DNA of 64,000 nucleotides from the NCBI GenBank assembly GCA_964017235.1, contig OZ024929.1:162611609-162675608 (forward strand), written 5' to 3'. The notes under the pieces were generated by a model, which was not told the origin of the DNA, did not search any database, and saw nothing but the letters and a program-made list of their open reading frames with translations. This DNA is from Sabellastarte sp. h YS-2021. Its lineage: Eukaryota > Annelida > Polychaeta > Sabellida > Sabellidae. This document shows positions 1 to 64,000 of the stretch, piece after piece; position 1 is the first letter of the stretch; each line of letters starts with the position of its first letter. A program made the translations under genes and the position numbers.

Positions 1-931
1 GAAGGAGACAAAAACTAACTCCTTGCGCTGTCTGAGGTCTGAAGTCCTGTCCAAATAGTAGCGCAAAGCTCTGACTGGGCACAAGGATCTGTCAGACTTG
101 AGACTTGAGGGATTTATCTAAAGTAGGAGCCAGGGCTGGTATGACCACTGGGGCTACACTCTCTGGACCCTCTTTGGCCAGCTGATTCTTGGAAAGAAAG
201 CTGGGAGATGGAAACAGGGACACCTTAGACCAATCGGATTGGTGTCTGATGTTCTTGTGCTGCCAAGCATGGATCTCACTCCTTCGTTTGCCAGAGCCTA
301 GGGCTAAAAGGAAGACAGTTTTGAAGGTAAGGTGCTTCAGAGATGCCTCCCTAAGAGGTTCAAAAGGAGCCTTTGTCAGCTGGTGTAGCACCAGGGAAAG
401 GTTCCAGGAGGGAATCCTCCTCCGCCCTTTGGGTCTATCTCTGTGGAAACTTTCCAAGAGACGAGTGAGATTATCATCTTTGCTGATATTGACTGTTGCA
501 TTACCTAGTTTATCAGCAATGGCAGACCTGTATCCATCAATGGTGCTGGGCTGTAACTTCTTGTTCTCAAAAAGGTACATTAGGAAGTCAGCCACCGACT
601 TTACAGGTGGTGACCTGAAGTCCACCTGATTAGTGACGCACCACTTTGTAAAAATGGTCCACTTTGCCTCATAGACTGATCTGGTAGATCTCCTTTGAGG
701 AGCCTCAATTCTTGCTGCCACTGCCTCAGAGAAGCCCTGTTCTTTGATTGTTGTGGCTCTAGGAGCCAGGCATGGAGATTTAGATTTGTCAGATTTCTGT
801 GAGGGATCTGATTGAAGGGCTGTGTGAGCAGGTTGGGCAGGCTGATAGGGACCTGACTGGACATGGTCACTAAGTCCCAAAACCAAGGCATGTTGGGCCA
901 CCCTGGGGCAATTAGAATTAGTCTCTTGCAC
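1..931 (-). pseudogene. DIRS tyrosine recombinase (YR), frameshifted and cut by the left edge
   Basis: The frame entering at 931 acquires recombinase homology from GFSEAVAARIEAPQRRST onward. The core-binding part (VYEAKWTIFTKWCVTNQVDF, KLQPSTIDGYRSAIADKLG) is followed by the start of the catalytic domain, with SGKRRSEIHAW carrying the first catalytic Arg. The frame stops at 92 after LDKSLKSQV. The coding strand has CTCAAGT twice in tandem just before this stop, and the frame shifted by one copy continues with SLCPVRALRYYLDRT to the window edge, so a 7-bp tandem duplication explains the break. The downstream HxxR and Tyr nucleophile would be beyond base 1. The family role is integration of circular cDNA by site-specific recombination. 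Confidence 0.85.
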
Positions 932-2826
932 GGGGAGTCTTGCAACTTCTCCACCACTTTGCCCAATATGGCGGTCGGTGGGAAGGCGTTATGCATCTAG
1001 ATCCTCCCATGGCAGGGTGAGTGCGTCCACTGCTACTGCCAGAGTGTCCGGCACTGGAGACACAAACAGAGGTAACTTGTTGTTGAACCTCGTGGCAAAT
1101 AGGTCTATCTGAGGCCGGTGCCATTTTCTGCACAAGTCTTGGAAAATGTCCGGAAGGAGGGACCATTCTGTTTGGATGGTCTGGTTTAGCCTGGATAGCT
1201 TGTCTGCTATCACATTTAGTCGGCCAGGGATATGTCGGGCTTTTAAGGTCACTTGTCGCTGGGAACACCAGGTCAAGATTCTCCACAGTAGAGCACACAG
1301 CGGGCCCGACTTCATTCCCCCTTCCTTGTTTATATAAGCCACTACCGTAGTATTGTCCGTGGCCACCAGGACAATGTTGTTTGTGCATAGGCTTTGGAAC
1401 TCTTTTAAGGCCAGGAGGACTGCTTTTAGTTCCAGATAATTTATGTGCAGCTTGCTTTCCGGCACTGACCAGGACCCCCTTGCAGTGAACTCGTTTAAGT
1501 GAGCGCCCCACCCTTCTTTTGATGCGTCTGTAAATATCTGCAGAGCATGTCTTACTGGGTGTAATGGTTGACCTTGAAGCACATTGTCTTCGTCTAGCCA
1601 CCATTGTAAGTGAGGGTGCAGGGTTCTCGGTAGGGGGATAATCTTCTCTAGAGATTCTGGCACTCTCCAATTGTTTTTGAGATGCCACTGTAGGGGTCTC
1701 ATGTGCAGTCGGCCGAGGTGAACTTGTTTCTCTGTGGCTGTTAGTAGGCCTATCAGGGACATGAATTGTCGGACCGGACAGGCCGGTAATAACAGAAGTA
1801 CTTGTATCTTGTCCTGAAGGCTTTGCCACCGGTCCGGGGTCGGTCGGACCAGGCCGGACCTGAGGTCGAACTGGTAACCTACAAAATTGAAAACTTGCTT
1901 CGGCACCAGCTCCAATTTTTCTGTGTTCACCAGCCATCCGAGTGCTTGACACATTTCCACCAGACTTTGAGTATGTTGGAGGCAGATATGGTATGATTTG
2001 GCCCGTACTAACCAGTCGTCTAGGTACTGGTGGATTCTTATACCCCTGTGACCGGCCATCAGCTTCACCTCCTTTATTAATACAGTGAACTCCATGGGTG
2101 CTGTGGACAGACCGAAAGGTAAGGCTTTGAATTGGTATGTCCGACCCTGGACATGAAACCTGAGATATTTCTTGGACTGTTCCTGTATTGGGATATGGAA
2201 GTAGGCATCTTTGAAATCGACCGAGGTGACCCATTCCCCTTGTTGGAGGGATGTTCTGATGGTTTCCGGTGTTTCCATCTTGAATTTCTCCACTTTGAGG
2301 AAAAGATTTAATTGGCTTAGGTCCAATATTGGCCTCCATTTGTTGTTGGGCTTGGGAACCAAAAAACAGTCGGTTGAAGAACCCTAGAGAGGTCTGTTTG
2401 AGCACTAGTTCTACAGCATTTTTGTCTATAAGCTGATGCAATGCCTCTAACAGGTAGCTGTTCCTGTGAGGATTGGCATAGCAGCTTACGACTGTGGGAT
2501 GTCTTGTCAACCTTGGCCGGTTCCGAAATGGAAGGGTATAACCCTCTTTCAAAATTTGGATCACCTTCGGACCGGCACCCAGATCCAGCCAAACCTGCCA
2601 AAAGTTTTGAAGTCTTGCCCCTACAGGAAGTTTTGATGCAACATTTTTTACACTTGCTACAGAAGGGACATAAGACAACTGAGTGACACAAGAAGCACCT
2701 TTCACATACTTTAATGAATGATCTCTTTGAGAATAACACTCCACTGGCCCGGGACTTAAATCTTTCCTTTGCGAATGCCCGGGCACAGTAGGTACACGAG
2801 TTACAACATTTAAGTTTACAAAACAA
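610..2826 (-). pseudogene. DIRS reverse transcriptase / RNase H polyprotein, frameshifted
   Basis: A Cys-rich start (CKLKCCNSCTYC; CERCFLCH; CPFCSKCKKCC) is followed by the RT entry region (ILKEGYTLPF, CYANPHRNSYL). The RT core follows: WRPILDLSQLNLFL, WVTSVDFKDAYFHIPI, LPFGLSTAPMEF and the catalytic QYLDDWL. The RNase H has IFTDASKEGWGAHL, LELKAVLLAL and ATDNTTVVAYINK. The entry region and core are in different frames; the join falls at an A6 run at 2361-2366 (T6 on the coding strand), where one base too many explains the shift. A second one-base excess near 988-991 produces the stop after PWEDLDA; the downstream frame resumes with AFPPTAILGKV and RLILIAPGWPNMPWFWDL. The Cys-rich and RT-entry frames also differ. 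The enzyme would copy element RNA to cDNA. Confidence 0.88.
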
Positions 2827-2898
2827 GTGTCTATTGTCTATCTCTTGGAGGTGCTCACGGCCAGCAGCCCTGACTGAAACTGAGTTACATAGTAATTG

Positions 2899-5125
2899 TC
2901 ATTTATAAGGCTGCTGGCCCTTGGCAGGTCGGGAAGTGTAGTTGGAGGCCTTTCCCCTGGGTTTCCGGTAATGACCTTTTCCAATACTTTTCCAAGCTGG
3001 CTTGTCTCCCTTCTTGTCCTGACGTCTGTCAGATTTCTTGTCAGGTCTGTCATAAGGGTGAAAACGGGCCTTGCCGCGTGAACCACTAGCCTGACCTCTA
3101 GACTCGTAGTGTGAGATCTCCTCCTCAGCCCTCTTTATCACTGAATCAGGGAAGAGGGTGGGAATATGAAGGGGCGCTGTTCTCAAGGCGGCTACAGTAT
3201 CCGGTTTAATACCCGACTTAACATGGGTAAGGTAAGCATCGCGTCTAGCCAAGGTGAGATTGCCCATGGAGATGAACACAAATTCGCTCAAGTGCTCCAT
3301 AGTCTTTGCAGCAGCTTGGGTGATACTTGAGTTGAACTCCATAAGATATTTAAGTTCATCCAAGGTGTTAGCACTCTTTGCGGCCCCTTTCCCCTTGCAA
3401 TCTGTCCGGAGACTTCTAAGTTGACTCTGCATGTCCTTCTGTACACGAAACAGGCACCTGTTGAAACTAGCGGCCTGATTGCATATAACGGACGCTTCCC
3501 TTGCGGATTTCTCCCACCTTCTTAAAGATTCCTGGGAAATGCGTCTGGAAGCTGGTGGAGTAGAAGTCAATCCGGACTGACGGGAAATCCGACTGAAACA
3601 ACTGTTTAGCTTTGAAGAATCCGTACTCCAGCCTGAGACAGCAGCAGGGTCACCTTTGTGGTCGGTGGCAAGACCGTACCATCTGGATTGCGACTTCGCT
3701 GTCCTCAGGAACTGGTCCATCAACAGGCCACCGGCCTCAGAACTACGGGAGGGGTATCCCTCAACCAGAGTCACGTTCATCTTCTTCATCTTCTTGCAAA
3801 GCCAATCTTCCGTCGGCATTTGGATGGAAACCTTGCCTGGAGTCACAGCTTTGGGGCCCGAAAAGGGATTGTCCTCAGATCCAGTGTTAGTACTTTCCAT
3901 TTCGGGAATGTCTGACCAGCCCATGTACTCCCGGATACCTTTCATAGTTTCCCTATAGGTTTGCTCTTCAGAAGGGATAAGTTCCGGTTCATTGATCAAT
4001 TCCGGGTCGTCCAACAGCTCTCCCTCCTCAGTGTAAAGATCCACTGCGGGTCTATCAGACAAGTCACTCACAGAGTCAGAGGTGTCACTAGAGGCACTGT
4101 CCTTTCGTTTTTTCTGAAGATGAGGAGAGCCGGTGTCGGTGATAGCAGTTGGTCGGTCAGAATGTTTGCTATGAGACCTTCCGGCAGATTGATGCTTCAA
4201 GTGAGAGTCGGTACCAGAATGTGTAGAAGGTTGGTCCCGTCCGGATGTCGGCCGGTCAGTGGGTTGATGCTGTGAAGCAGAGGAACCCTTATCTGAGTCG
4301 TGACCAGCATGTCGGTGAGGAGATCTGGAGGAAGGTTGGTCGGTGGCAAGATGGCTGGCTGGGTGGTGCTCTGAAGCAGAGAGACCCTTGCCAGAGCTCT
4401 TGGAAGAAACTGAAGCAGTCTGCTGCGTGTTGGATGTGAGCTGGCTGGCCGGTTGATGCTGTAAAGCAGAGGAACCTTTGCCAGTGCGCTCTGTAGTGGT
4501 AGACTGAGAGTCATATTCCGGCTGGCTGCCTGACTGATGCGTTTCCGCAGAGAAGGCTGTGCCAGTGTGCCCTGTAGGTTGAAAAAATGGCTCAGAGTCC
4601 CTGGGTTGAAAACTTTTAGAAAGCAAGAGAGCTTCCAACCTGTTGAAACGGTCGGACCACTTACTGTCCAAATCTGCTAACTTAGCGTCTGTCGAAGCTG
4701 AATCAGAAGACTTCTTAGGTTTAGCAGAAACCTTTTCCTTCTTGGCTTTCTTCTCTGGAGGCATAGAAGAAGAAGGAGGGGATTTAACAGAGTCTGTAGG
4801 AAGTGTTAGAGCCCTCCTGGCCAACAACCCCAATGACGGACACAGACGCAGGGTCGACCAGTTCAGAAGAATCTTTAGTGGGGGTGGCCGCAACAGATTT
4901 CCTTGCCTCACGTTTCTCTTTCTTAATCTTATATGATGGAGTTGAAATCTGAGCTAACTGTTCAGGTGTAAAAGCAGAGCAGAACTTACAAGAAGTAGTA
5001 TCCTTACTCTCCACACAAGGGTCTTTGCCTTTGTTCTTCTCGCGGCACCGCGCACAATAAGAATGTTGATCAAAAATCGCCATAGCATGGCCACAAGACC
5101 CCCTCTTCTGCCCCGGGGAAGACAT
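2899..5125 (-). pseudogene. DIRS Gag-like protein, split by one frameshift
   Basis: The amino end is at 5125 and begins MSSPGQKRGSCGHAMAIFD. It has a Cys/His-rich head (CGHAM, CARCREK, DPC, CKFC) followed by a TPEQLAQISTPSYK segment typical of DIRS Gag leaders. The rest is in another frame from about 4911 to the stop at 2899. It contains a Lys-rich stretch, the coiled-coil-like DAKLADLDSKWSDRFNRLEA segment, long Ser/Thr/His/Gln-rich low-complexity repeats, an acidic patch, a conserved central region, and a basic Gly/Lys/Arg-rich tail that probably binds RNA. The two frames overlap between 4784 and 4911, so one indel lies there. The role as structural protein of the retroelement particle is inferred from the family. 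Confidence 0.8.
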
Positions 5126-37900: not shown

Positions 37901-40309
37901 ACAAAAACATGACAGGTAGGTCTGCAATGTAAACAAATGTTATTTTTAATAAAGTATATTTTCAGATGATGTTATAAGCTCGAGTGTTGTAGTTTTAAAT
38001 TTCTTGATGTTACAAAGCAAAACAAAAACATGACTGAAAGTATAGTAGACACTAGTACAGAGAAGGCACTTAACACAATAAGAAGTCATTTCTAAAGATT
38101 GCAACATAATGAAATAAAAGCTTTTTAGATGAATAGGCTGCATTGGTTTTAGGCTTATATTATCAAGTATAATGTAAGTTCTGTCAATAAAATTTATTAG
38201 AATAATGGGTAAATGACCGTGACATCTGCTGATTGTAAATATTCTATTTGGTCAGTGACTTCACAAGCTTTTCAAAGGACTCAGAAGATGAAGTGCCTAA
38301 TTGGCTGGCCTCCATAAAGAAACATCAGAGCAGTCCGCCACATCAGGTACCCAATTCAAAGTGTTTACACACATTCACCTCTATTGCTGTTGAAGTCAGT
38401 CTTCATATGCTAATTGATAAGCAGGATACAACAACAGGCTTCAAACGGAATTTATATACAATGACCTCTGTTAGTGTTCAATATATTTCAATCTTTATAT
38501 GGGGGTTTATTCATAATGTTTGAGTCTTTGTATTTGTGTAACATTAAAAATAGGTAAACTGTGTAGCTTGTCATTATGATATTTGTGTTTTAACAATACG
38601 TTGGTGGAGTTTTATATAAATTTTTATGTCATAGAATGACACTTTATTTCATTTATTTGACTGCCACAGACAGGTATTACCTTTGAAACAAGAGCAACAG
38701 AATACTGTCGTCCTTTAAGTCACATCATGCAAGGGGAAGAAGGTAAATCATTTGAAACAAGACACATGTTATGTGTTCTAATTGCCAATATAACATGTAT
38801 TTTGGATTCTATGAATGTACATGTATATTTTTTCAGGTTGTACTAGGGAATACAACCACCTGGCAATGTTAAAATACAGCTTTAAAAATCATTATTTTAA
38901 CATGTTAAACATTAAAAATAAATTATTAATGCAACACAGTCGATTAAAAACGATTTAATATAAATAACACATAGCTTAAAACATGAATAAAGTGTCCACT
39001 ATAATTTGAATAAGTTAAATTTTACATCATTTAAATAAGCTTCGTACAACTACAATATAACTTAACCATCCATTCTAATTTCTAAACTCACTCTTTGTGC
39101 TGTATTTTAGGCAAGATAAATACTTCTCTGGAGCTTGTTAGTGTCCATGTTATCATCCGTCATGGAGACCGGAGTCCTATTTATGGCCTGCCCGGTATCA
39201 AGCCACCAAGGATATCATGTCTCTTCCATGACCGACCCCAGGATAATACAGTGACTAAGTACCTCAAGTGGTCAGCTGAAATGAATCTTACTTCAGGAAA
39301 GTATTATCCAAGTGATCCACTGTGTAATGGTGGCCAGTTGACACCTCAAGGAATGCTTCAGCATATTTCTAATGGTCAGTTCCTGGCATCCTCATATAGA
39401 GCTTCACTCCTGAATCAGACTTACATCAACAAATCTGCCATTAGCATATATATCAGAACAAGTGAAAATTCGAGAAATGTTCAAAGTGCATTAGCTTTTA
39501 CCTATGGATTAGTCTCTGATTTATCAAGAGTGGATTATTCTGTAGCAAACATGGAAGTATCTGATCTTACCAATTTTTGTTCTTCTAACTTTGCCAAAGT
39601 TCCTTGCCATTGTCCAGTTCTAGACATTCCTCACACTCATAAACACTTGTCCAAGGAACATGCTCAGATTCTAAGGTATAATCCTGAATATAGTAAAATA
39701 AAAGCCAAATTTGCTGCAGTTCTTGGTGTTACAGAGGGTAATGTGCCTTGGTTAGGAGCTGGTCTTGATGTACTGATGTCCTACACATGTCACCACCAGC
39801 ATTTACCTTGTGTGTCTCAGACTGGCAAGTGTACCACCCCTGAACTAGTCAGTGACATGTGGAGAGTCATTGACCAGACGGCAGAGACTGAGTTTAAAGC
39901 CCAGACCAAGAGACATTATGGCAGCCTTCTTATGTATCCCCTACTCAGAGAGATAGCATACAGACTGAGAAATATTACTAATGGTCTGTTGAGTCCAGCA
40001 TTTGTGTTGTATTCGGGCCATGACAAGATGCTTATTCCTATGGCTATAGCTTTGGGTGTCTATAATGGGAAGTGGCCTGGATATGCCAGTAGATTAGTCA
40101 TAGAGTTATATCGAGGAACTAAGTCAAGATATTACTTGCGCCTTTTGTTCAATGGAAAAAATATGACCACACAGATGAAACTATGTACAAAGTTTGAACA
40201 AGGTTTATGTCCTCTGAGTCAGTTCTTAAAGTCAGTATTTTCACAAAGTTTTGTGCCCAGTAACAGTTACAGGAAAATATGTAATGGTAGTAGAATTAAG
40301 AACAAGTAA
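34996..40309 (+). CDS. PXYLP1: PXYLP1-like 2-phosphoxylose phosphatase (histidine acid phosphatase), complete
   Basis: Coding exons are 34996-35071, 37819-37915, 38256-38346, 38670-38742 and 39111-40309. All have GT-AG borders and compatible phases (1536 nt, 511 residues). The start is the first ATG after an in-frame TAG at 34969. Residues 1-25 (RRHLLLAAGGVTVAFGMIL) form a short basic head and a type II signal anchor, as in the vertebrate Golgi enzyme. The branch-2 histidine phosphatase domain carries LVSVHVIIRHGDRSPIY (RHGDR at 129-133, His nucleophile 130), the Arg of RTSENSR near 228 and the acid/base SGHD near 416-417. Many Cys and N-glycosylation sequons suit the Golgi lumen. The vertebrate protein (about 480 residues) removes 2-phosphate from xylose in the glycosaminoglycan linker, allowing chain growth. 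No disabling changes are seen. Confidence 0.9.
35096..35330 (+). repeat. Dispersed repeat (same family as 13735-13990), in PXYLP1 intron 1
   Basis: It shares ACTAAGGCACACCATCCAA, AGTGTTCGG and GAAACATGGAAG-type segments with the other copies. It starts about 25 bp after the exon 1 donor. Confidence 0.6.
35527..35563. repeat. Poly(A) microsatellite
   Basis: A run of A's with a short AGGAAGAAAAAA continuation. The flanks carry repeated CATTACTAAGTTGCATTGTT-like words (35350-35580). Confidence 0.8.
35739..35957. mobile_element. MITE with 47-bp terminal inverted repeats
   Basis: Left end AGTGGTGGTGGACCAATTCA and right end TGAATTGGTCCACCACCACT are exact complements. The inverted match continues inward through a second CCAATTCACGCC-type word to CACCC/GGGTG. 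The 219-bp element has no coding capacity. It lies in PXYLP1 intron 1. Confidence 0.85.
36837..37655. repeat. Inverted pair of dispersed-repeat heads in PXYLP1 intron 1
   Basis: GGACTTTTATAGCGGTTAAT...GACTCTAAGGCGCA at 36852-36903 is matched in reverse by TGCGCCTTAGAGTC...TTAAACACTATAAAAGTAC at 37587-37640. These are 5' fragments of the family at 13735-13990, about 0.7 kb apart in opposite orientation. Confidence 0.55.
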
Positions 40310-47000: not shown

Positions 47001-50000
47001 CAACTAATGGTGATACTTCAAGTGCAATCAAATGGGATTAATCTATAATATGAATATTTTATAATTTTCTATATTTCGAGTGCTATTCTTACAAAAAATG
47101 TCAAAACTGTTACTATCCTACTATTTAACAGTATTTTAAGTCAGAGAACGCAAAAGGAACAGTAAAGTTGTAGGACAAATGTACTCGGGCCTTCAGACCT
47201 CATACATTTGTATGTACAAATCTACCATTCTTTGTGCTTTCTCCATGACATATCTTTTTCATAATTGTGGGACATATGCAGTCTTTATTCTAAATATATA
47301 TTTCATATATTTCTTTGAAAGGGTATAAACAACATTTTTCTTTTGTCTTGCAAACTAAAAAAAAGTATTTATTTGAAAATGTTACAGTATTTAAATATAA
47401 TAGATTTAATGCAAATTAGATATTTCTGGTCCTATTCCTTTCATAGAAAATGTACATTTTGAAATTTGTTCTTGACCATGAAACAATACTATGTCTTTGT
47501 TTACAAAAGAACACCTTCTTTGAGCCAAAACTAAATGCCTTTTTTAACCAAATGAAAAGTTATATGTATAAATAAACAGATATTTTTTAGTGGTCAAAGA
47601 ATTTGGAATATTTCCAATCAAGCTCATTATAAATGTCAAAAACAGCAGTCTTGTACGCTATAAACTTTAGAAAACTGTATTTAGGTACCAGATAAACAGT
47701 GCCATAATAAAGTCTAACCATGATCATACAGTCCTACATGTTCTTGGTCAGACTTGACCCCATGTTGGTGATATTCTTAAACTCAATGCAGAGAATAGGC
47801 AAGACAATTGTGGAGTTGAACCCAACCCTTGTGGCCATTGATTAAATATATGGGCTAATGATAATAATGGCAATAAAACATGCACCTGCATTTAGATGCA
47901 TAATGAAATGGTAAAAAGATCCCAGCACTGCGCTACAGCGAAGAATCTTGAAGCAAAACTCGCCTCTTACATGGCCATCCCATGAAAGGTCAAATACAGG
48001 TCAAGGTGACTACTAATTAGAATTTGAAAGTAAAGAAGTGAGATAGAGTGAAGTGAGCCAAACCAAAGCAACCCCAAGAGTCAATGCACAAAAACAAGAT
48101 CATATATTTTGGGCCATTTATTACTACCAAACATTTATTAGTAATTTTAGTAACAACAATACACAACAAGGTAGAAATAAAGGGTACATGTCCTGCATCC
48201 ACTCAACTTTCTCTTTGTCACTAACATGTTGTGAACACTCATATCACATAGAAACTTTTTAATAATGTTCTCAAATAATGTAGATCATTCAAAAAGTTTT
48301 GTTCCATCTGTTCTTGTTACACAGTGTCTTGTTTGTAGTGAGTTTGAAAAAGAAAGACACAGATGCAACAGTGAAGTTTAAGGGTCTGCTGTTGGAATGC
48401 CGGAATACAGATGGGGACATAAAGGGGAAATTTGCAGCTCCCAAGGACCCTTTTCAGCTGCGGGATTGTTCTGGTGATGACTCAAAGTCTGCCATTACAC
48501 ATAAAGATGGCACTGACAAAAACTTACCAGTTAGCTTCACTTGGACTTGCCCAGAGAAGGGAACCTATGAGTGTCTGTAAGTATTGTTTTTTTTAAATTT
48601 TATTTTTGAGTCACATTGTAGAAGTCATACACAATTCAAACTTATACAAAATGATAACATTATAATACCATAAAAGACAAGTGAATGAACCACATATAGC
48701 AAAGTTGCTTGTACCTATTGTTACAAATATCTATTTTCTACAAATTCTAACATGTTTTCTATTACCTTATAAACTCATGAATTTTTTCCTTTTAATTTAC
48801 ATAAATATAACTCTTTCTCTATGCTGCTATGTAAAACTTTACAAACTATGCACTCTGAGAGGGGATTGTCATTCCTTTTAGACAGGTAAATAAATTGTTT
48901 TGTAACTAACATTATCAGCTTCAACAAATGTAAGGTGCTGTTTCTCTGGCATGGAATACCTAGGAGAACTCCTAAAACAGTACAAATAAGTGTAAATTAA
49001 GAACCTTTTTAGATAAAATTTTTACAACATTCCACAAACTTTGAACACAGTCACAATGAAAGAAGAAACTTGATAGAATCAGTTAAATAAGAACTTTGAC
49101 ACATTGGGGATTTTACTATATTCCACAGGTTTAGATTGTAATTACAAACTGTGTATCTGTGTATGATGCTAAATTGTAGGCTTTGGAGTTTTAAATCGTT
49201 TGTCACTTTAGCTGGAAGTAGGTAGATTTTAGACCAGTTAAACTTGTCCATAAAGGATAGTATTCTACCCATTTGTTTTGTGCTGGTGGAGTTGACAAAT
49301 TACATGTTAAACTATTATAAATATCTTTATTGCTCAGTTTTTCAGCATTTAATTTTAGGCGCAGAATTTTCCAACTTGATGGTGGAAAATCTAAAGTTGT
49401 GTTACTTTTGATTTTGGTTTTCCATGCCATTGGAATAGCTGACAGAACAGAATGATATTTAAGGTCTTCTAGATCACAGTTGAACTCTATTACAATTTCT
49501 TGTATACTTTTAAAATTGCCATGTTTGACTAGCTGCCCAACTTGTGAAATGTTCGTCTTTTTTATAAAGATGTGATTGGGGCTAATGGTCTTTCCGCCAA
49601 TTAAAATAAACTTGTGATAAACTAGTTTTTCATTTAAAATTTCTTTTATACGATTAGGGTAGATAGCATAAAACTTATACCATGATTCTATGATCTGACT
49701 ATCAAATTTTGATAAACTTGAAGGAAAATTTGCGGCAGGAAGCTTATTCAACAGAATACTTTTGTCTTTAATACCAGCACAGGGCAGAGCAAGGTTAGTT
49801 GATTTTGAGGTTGAGCTCAGAAACCTTTTTGTCCATAATGCTTTCATAGAACAAATCATGTTTTGAAAATCAATCATTTTAGCTCCACCTAGGGTTTTAG
49901 AATTAATCATAACTTCTCTTTTCACTTTTGCCCTCTTTCCTTGCCCCCACAAAAATTGAAAAAATAATTCATCGACTTGTTTTATGAAGTATTCTGGTAT

Positions 50001-53000
50001 ATACACAGTGCTATATACATTTAGGATTTGGCTAAGCAACATTGTTTTAAGTACTGTTATTTTTTCAAACATTGTTAGATGCATGTTTGACCATGTTGTG
50101 ACTGTATTTTTAATTCTTTCAACTTTATCACTCAGATTTAGCTGAATCATCTCATCTTCATTACTGCTAATCCATATGCCAAGCATTTAAAAACTTCCTT
50201 TTTGCCAGGATATACCTGACTTATGCTTATCAACATTTTGCATATCCAGAGGAATAACTTCTGTTTTGTTTTAATTAATACAAAGTCCAGAACACACTGC
50301 GAACCTTTCTAATAATAATAATGAATTTTTCAGGGAAGAAATAGTGGCAAGATAAAGAGTGGTGTCATCTGCGAGTTGGCTTATCTTGAACTCTTCTTTG
50401 TTTATATTAATACCTTTGATGTCCTTATTGTTCATAATGCTTTTGGCTAAAATTTCCACAACAAGAATAAACAGAAGGGCAGAAAGACAGCAACCTTGCC
50501 TTATACCTCTTTCTAAAGTGAAAAATTCTGAAGATTTACCATTATTTGTCACACAACTTTCAAATCTGGGTATATAGTATTTTTACCCAGGATGTAAAGG
50601 TGTCACCAAAGTTAAAAACTTTCAGACATTTCAATAAGAAGGACCAATCAACTGTGTCAAAAGCTTTTTGAAAGTCAAATTGAGCTATTAGGCCTTTTTG
50701 CAAAGTCTTTTTACAGAAAGTTAAAATGTTTGCAGTAGTGCGAATATTTAGCCCTATAAAACGACCCTTTATATACCCAACTTGATCATGATCTACAATG
50801 TTATCAAGTACTGCTTGCATTCTCATAGCCAGTGCTTTCGTTAAGATCTCATAGTCAATGATATGAAGGGTAATAGGGCGCCAATGCTTTAAAAGTTGTA
50901 AGTCTTTGCCTTTTTTTGGTACTAAAGTGATAACTCTCCTTCTTTGATCTAGTGATAAAAGCTTGTGTTGAAACAACCAGACAAAACTATTGTGAAGGAA
51001 CATCTTTATTTTATCCCAGAAAAATTTACAAAATTCGACAGTAAAGCCATCACATCCTGGAGACATATTGCATCCTGGAGCCTTGCTGCATTCCTTTATA
51101 GATAATATTTCGTCGCAAGCACCTTTTTCTGTTTCTGTCAGTTTTGGAATATTATCTGTAAGCAAGAAAAGGTCTTCTAGAGATTTTTTGCAACAGTGGG
51201 TATTGTTTTTGCAAATGTCATGAGAGTATAAAGACTTGTAGTATTGTAGGATCTCTGCCTCAACAAAAATATCTCCTTTCTGTGTTTTCAGTCACCTTAT
51301 GCATTTTGTGTTGAAATTCCATTTTTCTATACTTTGCATGTAGCTTATACCTTTGATATCATTTTCTACCAGCTGAGCTATGGATCTTAAGACCGAGGCT
51401 TTTGCTCTATCTAAGTGTAATTGATATAGTTCTGCTTTAGTGTCTTCATGAGACCACATAAGGTCAGCTGAAGGTGCTTCCCCCAACTCCATCTCAAGTG
51501 AATGAAATTTGCTTGTTAGGTTATTTTCATAAAATTCTTTTTGTTTGGCTATATATGAGGTATGGGATATGGTTATTCCTCTTACATTTAATATAGTCCC
51601 ATAGGAGTGATTTGTTGTTATGTTCTTGTTCTTCTAACAGGAAGTCAGATAGAAGATAGTTGAGTTTACATACATATTCTGCATCTTTCAATAATTGTGC
51701 ATTGAATTTCCAAAAACCCCTACCTCTGGTCCATACTGAATTTTGTTTGAAGATAAACTGAACTAGACTATGATCTGAAATTATTCCTGGTGGAATTGAA
51801 CATTTAGGACTCAGATACTAAAAATCTTGTGATACCAGAAACATATCTAACCTTGATTGTATTAAAGTTGGTCTACCTTTATCACGCCAAGTATATTGCC
51901 TTTTTTAGAGAACAGAAATCCATAAACATCAAATAAACAAAACTGATCACATAAATCCTCAATGGCTTTTGAGGATTCTGACTGTGCCTCCCTAATGCCA
52001 CCAGATTTGTCTAACTCTGGATTTAAGTAAGTGTTCAGATCACCCCCGATCACGATAGGTTTCTCAATATATCGGATAAGAGTACTTTGCACATAATGAA
52101 AAAACGATAGTTGTTCAATCTTTTTATCTTTGGTGGGAGCATAAAGGTTGCCTAATACATATTCCGATTTTTTGTCTTTAATATGTAATAGCAGAAATTG
52201 CCCTTTCTCATCCATAACTTTGTCTAGTATTGTACAGTCAAGCTGCTTCGATATAAGAATACAAACACCTCTAGAAGATGTTGTACCATGTGAAAAGTAT
52301 AGATCAAAGTTTCTCATATCTTTCTTCTATTCTGTTTCAGTTTCAAGAGATGAGTGAGTTTCTTGTAAGAAAATTATGCTGTTATTTATTTTATTTAGCA
52401 ATTCAAACACTGGAAGCCTTTTTGTTTTTTTGCGCAGGCCGTTAGTATTAAAGGTCGATATTTTCACTTGACAAGACATATTTGATTGAAAAACAAAGAC
52501 TTTAAATTTGAATTAATACACCACTCTTCATCAGAAGGAGAACTCTTATTCCCCCCAAAAAAACATGGTTAAACAGCTTAGATGATCATAAGTTATATAT
52601 GCTGCCACTGAGATTGAGAAACAAAAGCAATCAGTTTTGCTCTATTACAGAAACACATTTTTCCTTCACCTTTTAAAGTTTTAACTGTGGATCTCACAGC
52701 ATGAAATTCTACAACATAACAAAAAAAATAAACAAATATTAAATCAAGAAGAAGCTTAACTAACATGGCTATTTGAAGACATTCTTCCCAGAGGGTCTCG
52801 CCGGTTTAGGGATTAGATGAACAAAAGTCTGCCTACACCAATTACCATATTTCTAAATATTTTCATTACAATGAATTAGTTGGTACCTAAATTTCTGGTA
52901 TGTTGTGTCACTTTTTGTAATAAAAACCTGGGTGTTTTAGTTAAGCACTTTTAGTCATTCATTACTTCTACAACATATCAGAATTTATATATATTTTGAA

Positions 53001-61055: not shown

Positions 61056-61589
61056 AATATAGGTCCTACATGTCACAGGAGAGGAAAGTGTGTTTTTTTT
61101 CTTGTGTGCTTTTTTGAACATTTCAAGTGGATATGTTTTGTCTTATGCAATAATTTTGGTACCACAAGAAAGATAAAGTAACATAGAATCAGCTGACCTG
61201 ACTGATAATCAGATCTTAATAAAGTCAGTGCTATTATAAACAGTTTCATGTTTTTGCAAAAAATCACAAGTCTTTGGATAAACTGATATTACACACAAAG
61301 AATTGGTTTAGTGATTAAATTGTTTAGTGGGGAAATTAATTTATCAACAAAAGAATAAATAACCACTTCACACCTTGCTTTTTGGCTGATGGATAATGAA
61401 CAAGGTGTGTCAACTGAATCTTTTACGAGTGTGTTAGCCTTTCACAGAGCTTGAAATCTTGTAACCTTTCATGAAAAAACTCTTTGGAGCCTTCAGTTGG
61501 ACAATGTAACTTAAGGGGAAAGAAATATTAGCCTTGCTGCATTGTGACATTTCACTACCTAATTGGACTACAACTCTTATTATAGCAAA
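61056..61589. other. Upstream flank / possible 5' UTR of the LINE at 61590
   Basis: No coding signal. The LINE 5' end is probably within the last ~100 bp but cannot be placed. Confidence 0.35.
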
Positions 61590-62843
61590 TATGGATTTAT
61601 CACAGGTTCAACCTGTCTTTATAAATGCCAAAGATATTATCAACTTTAAAACTGTGCAGGAGTATGAAATTTGTGAATCAGTTACATAGTCATATCTAGG
61701 GACAAACTGATTGCGACCCAAAGTGTCTGCATGCTTTGGAGGATTTATGTGAAAGACAATGAAGCAAGGATAAACTTGTGCACGTCACATTTTAACATCA
61801 GAAGACAAACTGTGCAAGTATTCACCAACAATCCATTCAGGGCAGGCATTGATATAGACCAAACTGATGATGATGTGCTTAGAATAGTTATCAAGGAAGT
61901 CCCCTTATCAAAGGGCAACAGGGACATTGAAAAGTATTTAACCTTGAAGGATATAAAATTGAAGAGGCCTATAGAGTTTGGTAAAGTGAGAAATGATCAC
62001 AATGAACTTACAAACTTTCTGAATGGTGATAGAATAGTATATGTTGAACCTTTCCGAAATCCACTGCCAAGAAGGGCTCAAATTGGAGGAGAAAGTGCCG
62101 TTATCTTCCACAGAGGCCAAAAGAAATGGCAAAAACCCCTGTGCAACAACTGTTTTCAAGAGGGTCACTTTCGAAATCAATGCCAGAATGAGCCTTGCTG
62201 CATGGTGTGTAAAAAGCCAGGTCACAGCCCAGGTGAGCCTATCTGTCCAGGATCAGCAAAACAGTTGCATAAGAATGTTGAGCCTTTCCAAGGTTACGAA
62301 AGCCCATTGAGTAACTATTATCCCTGTGACTTTAAAGTCTTTGGTGTTGAGGTTAAGTCAGCTGAACATGGCTATCAGTTCTCCAAGGCTGTACAGTGTG
62401 GACATGAGGATATTGCTAACCAGGTTCTCTCTGCAAAAACTGCATTGCATCCAAGGCACATTGCCTCATCACTTCCTTTTAATCCAAACTGGGAAAGTGT
62501 TAAGGAGGGTCAAATGGCACAAGTCCTGGAAGCAAAGGCAAAATAATGCCAAGAATTTTGTGACATGCTGAAAGAAAGCGGAACAAAAATCTTAGCCGAA
62601 GCTGTACCTGGCGACTTCTTTTGGTCGGCAGGTCTCAACAAATGTGACATTTTAAAAGTGAAAAAGAACAGTGTGCCTGGGCAGAATCGAATGGGGAAAC
62701 TTCTTATGGATATAAGAGCAAAAGTTGCAAAACAAAAGACATGGAAATCAAGCCAAAGAAGAAAAAATCAGGGAAAGACAACAGCCAGGCAAACCAATGA
62801 CAGAAGTGAATCGGAATCAGATTATTATTTTTCTGACTTGTAA
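61590..62843 (+). pseudogene. LINE ORF1: RRM-like region, two CCHC knuckles and a NADAR domain
   Basis: An ATG at 61590 opens MDLSQVQPVFINAKDIINFK; after a frame break near 61665-61690 the main frame runs from about 61690. Bases 61870-62060 read as an RRM-like fold (VLRIVIKEVPLSKGNRDIEK, ELTNFLNGDRIVYVEPF). CCHC knuckles follow: CNNCFQEGHFRNQC and CMVCKKPGHSPGEPIC. From about 62280 a NADAR (YbiA-like) domain begins: FQGYESPLSNYYPCDFKVFG, KSAEHGYQFSKAVQCG, and after an in-frame TAA at 62544-62546 the same frame continues with AVPGDFFWSAGLN and NRMGKLLMDIRAKV. NADAR proteins act on ADP-ribose/NAD-related substrates (de-ADP-ribosylation has been shown for some). Its role in a LINE is unknown. 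The ORF2 start lies 124 bp downstream of the ORF1 stop. Confidence 0.82.
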
Positions 62844-62966: not shown

Positions 62967-64000
62967 ATGCCCAAAAAATTCAGTTTATTAACATGCAATG
63001 TTAGAGGTCTGAATGACCTTAACAAGTGTAGGAACGTATTTTCATGGATAAAAGATCAAAACATTGATATTGCTTTCCTGCAGGAAACCTTTTGTACACC
63101 AAACTTTGAACAAAATATAAAAACTGCCTGGAAAGGTGAGGTTCGAAATGCATGTTCTGATTCCAGTCACTCAAGAGGTGTAAGCATCTTGTTTTCTGAA
63201 AACTTTAAAGGTAAAATCATAAACACTGAAATCGGTGAAAATGGTAGAACTTTATTGGTTAATTTAGAGTACAACAACGAAATATTCACAGTAGTGTCTG
63301 TATATGCTCCAAACTGTGAATACAGCAGGATAGAGTTTTTAAAAAACTGACTAAGTGGGTTCAACAACATACAATTAACAGTAATAATGTTATCATTGCT
63401 GGTGACTTTAATGTGTGTGTCCACCCTGTGGATAGGTTTCCTCAAAGGTCTTTGATAGATAAAAGTAAAAAATGTTTTGATGTTTTCTAGACCAGTGCAA
63501 GTTGCTAGATTGTTGGCAAACAAAACATACAGGTAAGCCCGGTTTTACGTATTATGATAAGAAACACAAAAGCTACAGTAGATTGGACTATTGTCTATTA
63601 TCACAAAATTTAAGTAATGTCTTATCTGAAATTTTTATTAAACAACCACCAAGTGAAAGAAATGTTATTGATCATAAAGCCCTTATTATTTCTTTGAAAT
63701 TAAATACCATAAAACGGGGTCCCGGTTACTGGAAATTAAATAACAGTATTCTGGGAGATCATGAGTACACTTTCAATATTCAAAATATTATAAAAGAAAC
63801 AATTGTGCTATGCAAAAACAAATTGAGTAATCGACTTATCTGGGAGCTATTAAAAATAAATATCAAAGAATACTCGGTAAATTTTAGCGTTAAAAGGGCA
63901 AAATTATTAAACACAGAATTAAAAGATCTTCAGAATGAGTTAGACTCTCTTAATGATATAATAACTGAATATCATATTAGAGGAGAAACTACTGCCAACC
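62967..64000 (+). pseudogene. LINE ORF2: APE endonuclease and start of RT region, cut by the right edge
   Basis: It starts at ATG 62967 with KFSLLTCNVRGLNDLNKCRN and continues with DIAFLQETFC, SHSRGVSILFSENFKG and VVSVYAPNCEYSRIEF. A frameshift sits at an A-rich run near 63340-63350; the next frame has VIIAGDFNVCVHPVDRFPQR. It stops near 63488, and from 63491 an open frame runs to the window end with the endonuclease C-terminus (SRLDYCLLSQNL, DHKALIISLKL) and the linker toward RT (GPGYWKLNNSIL). This is the Tx1/L1 type of AP-like endonuclease that nicks target DNA for target-primed reverse transcription. The RT domain proper lies beyond the window. Confidence 0.88.

What the first reader, a model, noticed from the sequence alone, without database searches (positions are those of the whole stretch)
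61590..62843. LINE ORF1 fused to a NADAR (YbiA-like) domain
An RRM-like region and two CCHC knuckles, normal for Tx1/L1 ORF1 proteins, are followed in the same frame by a NADAR domain (PLSNYYPCDF, SAEHGYQF, DFFWSAGLN, LLMDIR). An APE-type ORF2 starts 124 bp later. The sequence shows the fusion and the linkage to ORF2. That NADAR enzymes act on ADP-ribose chemistry is established. That the element uses it to remove host ADP-ribosylation, for example from PARP responding to nicked target DNA or RNA, is my inference. I recall similar domain strings in invertebrate genomes but no experimental account of a LINE-borne NADAR.
Basis: partly seen in the sequence, partly recalled or inferred. Interest (0 to 1): 0.72.

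Follow-up and report, generated by a model that had tools for sequence, protein, structure and literature searches.

The report
ADP-ribose-removing enzyme inside LINE retrotransposons
In this large genome, several kinds of LINE retrotransposon carry, at the end of their RNA-binding protein, a conserved enzyme domain of a family known to strip ADP-ribose from guanine; it is kept by selection, so these elements may be protecting or cleaning their own nucleic acids.

Summary
The fusion is real, but the window copy is dead: ORF1 (61591-62843) has a frameshift and an in-frame stop, and ORF2 is broken. Four of 8 full-length siblings (93-97% identical) keep one open 420-aa ORF1 with CCHC knuckles and NADAR (E 6e-24 in L014), linked to ORF2, so this is no chance insertion. 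NADAR is a widespread ORF1 module in this genome: the Pfam search gave 2,705 candidates, and all 150 scored passed the cut-off. A second ORF1 type, L1-like (coiled coil-RRM-CTD) plus NADAR, is linked to Tx1/L1-like ORF2s and to an unrelated, probably Jockey-superfamily, ORF2. Ligand residues E43, W89, E125 and W133 are invariant in the open copies aligned; K50 is lost in 3 loci. NADAR evolves under purifying selection. ORF1 and ORF2 histories disagree, implying ORF1 exchange. One 2025 paper already mentions NADAR in oyster Tx1 ORF1s. Best mechanism, inferred: ORF1p carries an ADP-ribosyl-guanine hydrolase to the element's own RNA and cDNA.

The parts
61063..61590 (+). 5' part of the element upstream of ORF1 (probable 5' UTR)
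   Evidence: Similarity to 8 of 8 sibling loci compared (L010-L017) begins at 61061-61063; 92-97% identity.
61591..62843 (+). ORF1, decayed: frameshift upstream of about 61690, in-frame TAA at 62544-62546, terminal stop 62841-62843
   Evidence: siblings L011-L014 keep one open frame here.
61677..62258 (+). N-terminal part of ORF1 including the knuckles (RNA-binding region expected; RRM not detectable by sequence)
62142..62246 (+). Two CCHC zinc knuckles (about 62142-62183 and 62199-62246)
   Evidence: Read from sequence; zf-CCHC weak matches; nucleocapsid profile match.
62298..62723 (+). NADAR domain, interrupted by the stop; ligand positions by reading: E 62364-62366, K 62385-62387, W 62490-62492, E 62598-62600, D 62613-62615, W 62622-62624
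   Evidence: PF08719 pieces; residues mapped to 8BAU on siblings and carried to the window by reading.
62967..64000 (+). ORF2 start: APE-type endonuclease of an L1/Tx1-like ORF2, frameshifted, runs off the window
   Evidence: Exo_endo_phos 7.8e-7; open relatives.

Best explanation
The window holds a decayed copy of a Tx1/L1-like LINE whose ORF1 normally ends in a NADAR domain. Shown: NADAR is a standing ORF1 module of many LINE lineages in this genome, with two ORF1 architectures and at least two ORF2 kinds, and it is kept by purifying selection with the main ligand and catalytic positions intact in most lineages read. Inferred: ORF1p coats the element's RNA and brings an ADP-ribosyl hydrolase into the RNP. 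There it removes ADP-ribose from guanines of the RNA template, the nicked target or the new cDNA, where such an adduct would block reverse transcription or mark the element for restriction. Likelihoods: NADAR a functional, selected part of the element 0.93; acts enzymatically on ADP-ribose chemistry 0.65; substrate is guanine-linked ADP-ribose on the element's own nucleic acids 0.4.
For: Open siblings and linkage: 20 of the 25 best window-family ORF2 rows have ORF1 upstream, 0 opposite, 0 downstream. L1-type ORF1-NADAR lies upstream of the L041-type ORF2 in 23 of 78 match rows (22 NADAR places, since one gave two rows), 0 opposite, 0 downstream, and upstream of the L042-type ORF2 in 10 of 96, 7 of them at exactly 2,611 bp; only 150 of 2,705 NADAR candidates had coordinates, so these are lower bounds. 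Residues E43, K50, W89, E125, D130, W133 of the ADP-ribose-bound oomycete NADAR (8BAU; PMC11543638, passages) are identical in 31 of 31 open NADARs first read; in 12 window-type NADARs E43, W89, E125, W133 are 12 of 12. Purifying selection at low divergence: L139/L144 NADAR omega 0.10, dS 0.15, p 8e-6; L039/L045 0.15, dS 0.11, p 5e-4; at higher divergence L042/L053 0.13. Guanine de-ADP-ribosylation is shown for bacterial, phage and oomycete NADARs (PMC11543638, PMC11125620, passages). Clams have a guanine-N2 DNA ADP-ribosyltransferase, CARP-1 (PMC11209040, passages).
Against: No activity or expression data. K50, whose counterpart is essential in the E. coli C7 enzyme, is H or Q in 3 of 12 window-type NADARs (L136, L139, L144), and L139/L144 are still under purifying selection, so some lineages may use a non-catalytic or altered domain. 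R79 and R93 vary. E. coli YbiA is linked to riboflavin intermediates (PMC11543638, passages), so other N-glycosides are possible. Whether this host makes guanine ADP-ribose is unknown; the search for that transferase family (accession recalled) did not complete.
Confidence: 0.4

Rival explanations
1. NADAR acts on small molecules (cyclic or linear ADP-ribose derivatives, RNA-repair by-products), blunting a host NAD-based alarm rather than cleaning nucleic acids.
For: Proposed for viral NADARs in PMC9503650 (passages); the L1-type LINE NADARs lie on the side of viral-contig NADARs in the trees and reach 45.5% identity with phage ones.
Against: The same paper argues that eukaryotic RNA-virus NADARs target macromolecules; fusion to an RNA-binding ORF1p fits a nucleic-acid substrate better than a diffusible one.
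Confidence: 0.2
2. NADAR serves element RNA processing, as suggested for Ectocarpus Gypsy and oyster Tx1 elements.
For: Hypothesis in PMC12477816 (passages); a nematode trans-splicing paper deals with a NADAR-domain protein (PMC9303266, search listing only).
Against: No biochemical case known to me of a NADAR processing RNA ends; the members tested in the papers seen are hydrolases of ADP-ribosyl-guanine.
Confidence: 0.12
3. One reading: NADAR removes host protein ADP-ribosylation made by PARPs at nicked target DNA.
For: Target-primed insertion nicks DNA, and PARP1/PARP2 gather at single-strand breaks (PMC8535693, passages).
Against: Loss of PARP1 or PARP2 is reported to halve human L1 insertion (PMC8535693), so they help; the NADARs tested act on guanosine-ADPr and not thymidine-ADPr (PMC11125620, passages).
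Confidence: 0.08
4. NADAR is now a non-catalytic binding module (ADP-ribose or nucleic-acid reader) in these ORF1ps.
For: K50 changed in 3 of 12 window-type NADARs, with continuing purifying selection in L139/L144.
Against: All six ligand positions are unchanged in 31 of 31 others first read, which a pure scaffold would not need.
Confidence: 0.15
5. Chance insertion or readthrough of a host NADAR gene next to a LINE.
For: The window copy alone is broken.
Against: Repeated across sibling copies, subfamilies and chromosomes with constant spacing.
Confidence: 0.01

Closest known systems
Tx1 LINEs of Pacific oyster with NADAR in ORF1 (Repbase; one sentence in PMC12477816)
   Same: Tx1/L1-like element with a YbiA-family NADAR in ORF1, as in the window family.
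   Different: The passages I read give no linkage, selection or catalytic analysis for the oyster elements and do not mention an L1-type ORF1 or a second ORF2 kind.
Ectocarpus Gypsy elements with NADAR in Pol (PMC12477816)
   Same: A retrotransposon carrying NADAR.
   Different: LTR element, domain in Pol, brown alga.
P. nicotianae NADAR 8BAU and E. coli YbiA 2B3W
   Same: Sequence match; E43, W89, E125, W133 and mostly K50, D130 of 8BAU conserved.
   Different: Stand-alone enzymes; R79 and R93 are not kept as Arg in most LINE copies.
Human L1 ORF1p (2YKP) and ORF2p (8UW3)
   Same: The second ORF1 type matches L1 ORF1p over coiled coil to CTD (E 1.7e-12); the L042 ORF2 matches ORF2p over nearly its whole length (220 bits).
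   Different: No NADAR in L1 ORF1p (recalled).
CR1/L2 LINEs with exchanged ORF1s (PMC4120745)
   Same: Whole ORF1s moving between LINE lineages; an enzymatic ORF1 domain (esterase) as precedent; type II ORF1s occur in some CR1 and L2 subgroups.
   Different: That study covers the Jockey superfamily; here the same ORF1 kind sits on Tx1/L1-like and on L041-type ORF2s, and it carries NADAR (word absent from that paper).

Membership tests
NADAR (PF08719), YbiA subfamily | Profile match over the curated cut-off | tested here: met
   Open sibling L014 85.5 bits against cut-off 35.1; three L1-type ORF1s 146-149 bits.
NADAR (PF08719), YbiA subfamily | Glutamate at E125 (YbiA) rather than Asp or His | tested here: met
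   31 of 31 and 12 of 12, 4 of these shared with the first set.
NADAR (PF08719), YbiA subfamily | Lysine at K50 | tested here: inconclusive
   31 of 31, but 9 of 12 in the window-type set.
NADAR (PF08719), YbiA subfamily | ADP-ribosyl-guanine hydrolysis | not testable with these tools
   Needs biochemistry.
Tx1/L1-superfamily LINE | APE endonuclease and reverse transcriptase in ORF2 | tested here: met
   Exo_endo_phos in L012, RVT_1 in relative L037.
Tx1/L1-superfamily LINE | RT closest to L1/Tx1 in a reference tree | tested here: inconclusive
   The L042 ORF2 prefers human L1 ORF2p and window-type endonucleases resemble it (103-117 bits); no reference tree was made and the Tx1 label is recalled.
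Type I ORF1 (RRM upstream of CCHC) | CCHC knuckles | tested here: met
   (weak scores, clear motif).
Type I ORF1 (RRM upstream of CCHC) | RRM domain | tested here: inconclusive
   No match in Pfam or in PDB sequences; single-sequence fold too poor (pLDDT 38).
Type II (L1-type) ORF1, for the second NADAR group | Coiled coil, RRM, CTD as in L1 ORF1p | tested here: met
   Profile of 19 sequences matches 2YKP best, E 1.7e-12; 575 chains matched up to E 5, those listed after L1 ORF1p being mostly coiled coils. Pfam itself gave no RRM or L1 ORF1 match for the three scanned.
Jockey superfamily (CR1/L2), for the L040/L041 ORF2 | RT groups with CR1/L2/Jockey | not tested
   Only shown not to be L1/Tx1-like: 90 bits to L1 ORF2p, RT part without endonuclease; at most 25 bits to the Tx1-like endonucleases. 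The Jockey label rests on recalled RT motifs.

The most novel reading that the evidence does not exclude
LINEs in this genome are locked in an ADP-ribosylation conflict. NADAR erasers were captured twice (a YbiA-like one by Tx1 elements with a CCHC ORF1, a phage/virus-like one by elements with an L1-type ORF1), and the second ORF1 was then handed across LINE superfamilies because carrying an eraser of guanine ADP-ribose pays. This implies an unknown host system that ADP-ribosylates retrotransposon RNA or cDNA.
Probability: 0.25. Interest if true: 0.87.

Novelty: new variant of a known kind. Interest (0 to 1): 0.62.

Why it matters
NADARs occur across invertebrates, and their roles in animals are described as unclear (PMC11125620, passages; a nematode trans-splicing protein, PMC9303266, seen in a search listing only, may be an exception). 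If many of them are LINE ORF1s, their role is in retrotransposition, and annotations of 'animal NADAR genes' need sorting. A selected eraser inside a selfish element points to a host activity that writes ADP-ribose on nucleic acids, which would be directly testable. It would also add an enzyme to the few known in LINE ORF1s and extend ORF1 exchange across LINE superfamilies.

Tried and rejected
Chance insertion was rejected by linkage. Independent double capture of NADAR by LINEs is the free-tree topology (split 98/93, whose bootstrap had not settled) but is not required: the AU test does not reject a single LINE clade (p 0.33 with 23 LINE rows, p 0.198 with 29). The first tree held rows that I take to have been read in a wrong frame (L085, L104, L116, L124) and is superseded; for I dropped 11 of 80 rows (short, near-duplicate or long) and added 6. 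AF2 on the window protein alone gave pLDDT 38 and was not used. Counting-method dS saturated for most pairs, so pairwise ML was used; pairs with dS above about 3 only show omega well under 1, not its value. The first ML script stopped after 4 pairs. Near-identical pairs (L012/L014, L043/L049, L047/L052, L042/L048) do not differ from omega 1. Window versus L014 gave omega 0.40 over 368 codons (2dlnL 5.65), compatible with selection on the source lineage and decay since. DNA search of phages with the window NADAR found nothing; protein search with the L041 NADAR matched 719 phage records, all under 60% identity, best 45.5%. Not settled: whether NADAR-less sister LINE families exist here (DNA requests gave nothing), whether the host has guanine ADP-ribosyltransferase genes, the ORF1-ORF2 link of the L039 group (unanswered, not repeated), the species.

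Full report
What is in the window. The element begins near 61063, where similarity to 8 of 8 sibling loci compared begins, and runs off the window end. ORF1 spans 61591-62843 but is broken: the start codon at 61591 is in a different frame from the main open stretch 61677-62543, a TAA stands at 62544-62546, and the same frame continues to 62840. ORF2 starts at 62967 with an APE-type endonuclease and is frameshifted. NADAR matches come from both sides of the stop (E 1.7e-5 and 2.4e-9). A translated search with 31 NADARs and their N-terminal parts finds this ORF1 and no other in the 64 kb.

Is it the element's own domain? The window lies in a 1.786 Gb genome held as G000 (species not given). A DNA search with the ORF1 gave 42 matches (45 candidates, 40 scored), 9 of them full-length at 93% or more counting the window itself. 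Of the 8 siblings among these (L010-L017), 4 keep one open ORF1 of 420 aa with knuckles and NADAR (L011-L014), 3 have shorter open pieces and in 1 none was found by the motif used. In L014 NADAR matches at 6.1e-24, and L012 and L014 have an open ORF2 start. More distant subfamilies show the same layout: L025 (70% DNA identity, 400 aa) and L033-L035 (66%, 421 aa). Of the 25 best of 97 ORF2 rows, 20 have the ORF1 upstream on the same strand, with constant spacing within subfamilies (121-126, 182 and 256 bp for 15 of the 20), and none has it on the other strand or downstream within 3 kb. Upstream of 14 more distant ORF2s (36-45% identity to the L014 ORF2), 10 hold both the N-terminal part and NADAR by translated search and 4 hold neither. 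I therefore met no NADAR-less relative, but could not look for one properly because the genome tool stopped answering.

A second, larger group. The Pfam NADAR search of the whole genome had 2,705 first-look candidates; 150 were scored and all 150 passed the curated cut-off. The best 38 rows have short frames (167-179 aa); 8 of them were read (L001-L008, see the passing notes). Of the 150, 54 have open frames of 390 aa or more (from the table). I fetched 24 of these 54 (4, 20): all 24 are an ORF1 with a C-terminal NADAR, and no CCHC pattern was found in them. A profile of the N-terminal parts of 19 of the 24 matches human L1 ORF1p best, across coiled coil, RRM and CTD (2YKP, E 1.7e-12); weaker listed matches are mostly other coiled coils. 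So this is an L1-type (type II) ORF1.

Which ORF2s they travel with. For the L041-type ORF2 (1,146 aa), 23 of 78 match rows (22 NADAR places) have a scored NADAR upstream on the same strand, 21 of the 23 at 810-1,630 bp, and none lies opposite or downstream within 8 kb. Downstream of 11 other L1-type ORF1-NADARs, 8 show a Tx1/L1-like endonuclease frame on the same strand within 2.5 kb and 3 show none. The L042-type ORF2 has NADAR upstream in 10 of 96 rows, 7 at exactly 2,611 bp. The L042 ORF2 matches human L1 ORF2p over its length (220 bits). The L041 ORF2 matches it outside the endonuclease only (90 bits), and the L040/L041 endonucleases share at most 25 bits with any Tx1-like one, against 63 to 418 among the rest. 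That the L041 kind is CR1/L2-like (Jockey superfamily) is my reading of recalled RT motifs, not a tree.

ORF1 exchange. In the tree of N-terminal ORF1 parts (NADAR left out), the ORF1s with the L041-type ORF2 group with the L042/L053/L055/L059 ORF1s (97/98). The ORF2s of that second set are Tx1/L1-like where seen (L042, with repeated linkage; L055 and L059, one locus each; none seen for L053 in 2.5 kb). The NADAR trees put the same lineages side by side (83/81, 90/91, 86/89 with L056 inside). Within the Tx1-like set the L042 ORF2 resembles those of L049, L050, L054 and L061 (314-327 bits) far more than that of L055 (139 bits), although its ORF1 sits with L055. So ORF1 and ORF2 do not share one history. 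Exchange of whole ORF1s is documented within the Jockey superfamily (PMC4120745, abstract, passages and sections 7 and 13); here it appears to span LINE superfamilies.

Selection and catalytic positions. Numbering follows the oomycete NADAR bound to ADP-ribose (8BAU; residues from passages of PMC11543638). E43, K50, W89, E125, D130 and W133 are identical in 31 of 31 open NADARs first read; these include 2 stand-alone copies and several near-identical pairs, and most were chosen for open frames. R79 and R93 vary. In 12 window-type NADARs (4 shared with the first set; L143 is close to L133 and cut short, L144 close to L139) E43, W89, E125 and W133 are 12 of 12, K50 is 9 of 12 (H in L136, Q in L139 and L144) and position 130 is D in 6 and E in 6. 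L131 could not be read there and L134 was not given. L131 is frameshifted and shows K at the E43 position by eye. Pairwise ML rejects omega 1 for NADAR at low divergence: L139/L144 omega 0.10 (dS 0.15, p 8e-6), L039/L045 0.15 (dS 0.11, p 5e-4); at higher divergence L042/L053 0.13 (dS 1.5). The other diverged pairs have NADAR dS of 2.5 or more and reject 1 strongly. NADAR is constrained about as much as the rest of ORF1. Near-identical copies do not differ from neutrality.

Origin. In the last tree (75 rows) window-type NADARs lie on the side of bacterial YbiA-like proteins (with 2 viral-contig rows), and L1-type ones on the side of the other viral-contig, the oomycete and the stand-alone NADARs (split 98/93; bootstrap not settled). 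An AU test does not reject one LINE clade (p 0.198; p 0.33), so two captures are suggested, not shown. The L041 NADAR is up to 45.5% identical to phage NADARs.

Mechanism. Established: NADARs of bacteria, a phage and an oomycete hydrolyse ADP-ribosyl-guanine in DNA (PMC11543638, PMC11125620, passages), and L1 ORF1p binds RNA and acts as a nucleic-acid chaperone (PMC4120745, passage). Shown here: the two are one protein in many LINE lineages, selected together. Inferred: the hydrolase works on the element's RNA, cDNA or nicked target. A donor of such marks is conceivable, since clams contain a DNA guanine-N2 ADP-ribosyltransferase, CARP-1 (PMC11209040, passages), but I do not know the species here and the search for such genes did not complete.

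What is known. Paper searches for NADAR with retrotransposon (20 of 104 listed), NADAR domain (one listed), YbiA with ORF1 or retrotransposon (12 of 1,150 listed) and DUF1768 (one listed) led to one relevant paper, PMC12477816 (passages). It reports NADAR in Ectocarpus Gypsy Pol and adds that several Tx1 ORF1s of Pacific oyster in Repbase appear to hold a NADAR, with role unclear. I saw no account in these searches of NADAR on an L1-type ORF1 or on a second LINE superfamily; the library holds open-licence papers only, and apart from the passages named I saw listings.

Noticed in passing
L001-L008, L110 (for example G000:C1:16781450-16791449): A stand-alone NADAR frame (167-179 aa) lies in a repeated unit: L001-L003 and L004-L008 form two sets of near-identical stretches (98-99.8% over most of 3.4 kb) with tandem repeats downstream (period 166 in L110). 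L110 also shows a dUTPase frame (E 1.3e-19) and frames without a Pfam match, so it looks like a large virus-like mobile element; it was only described.
   Followed up: partly
L042 and siblings, between ORF1 and ORF2: A spacer of exactly 2,611 bp between NADAR and the ORF2 match recurs in 7 places; such a long gap in a LINE seems unusual and its content was not analysed.
   Followed up: no
L139, L144 (K50 to Q) and L136 (K50 to H): Window-type NADAR lineages that lost the lysine whose counterpart is essential in E. coli C7, yet L139/L144 stay under purifying selection.
   Followed up: partly
window 95-4953, - strand: Long frames that look by eye like a DIRS-type element (RT, RNase H, tyrosine recombinase); no domain search was run.
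   Followed up: no
window 49206-52326, - strand: Pieces of a decayed L1/Tx1-like ORF2 (by eye); no NADAR next to it.
   Followed up: partly
window 39086-40306, + strand: A 407-codon open frame resembling a histidine acid phosphatase (by eye).
   Followed up: no
literature: Animal NADARs are listed in PMC11125620 (passages) for molluscs, echinoderms, cnidarians and others; some may be LINE ORF1s rather than host genes.
   Followed up: no
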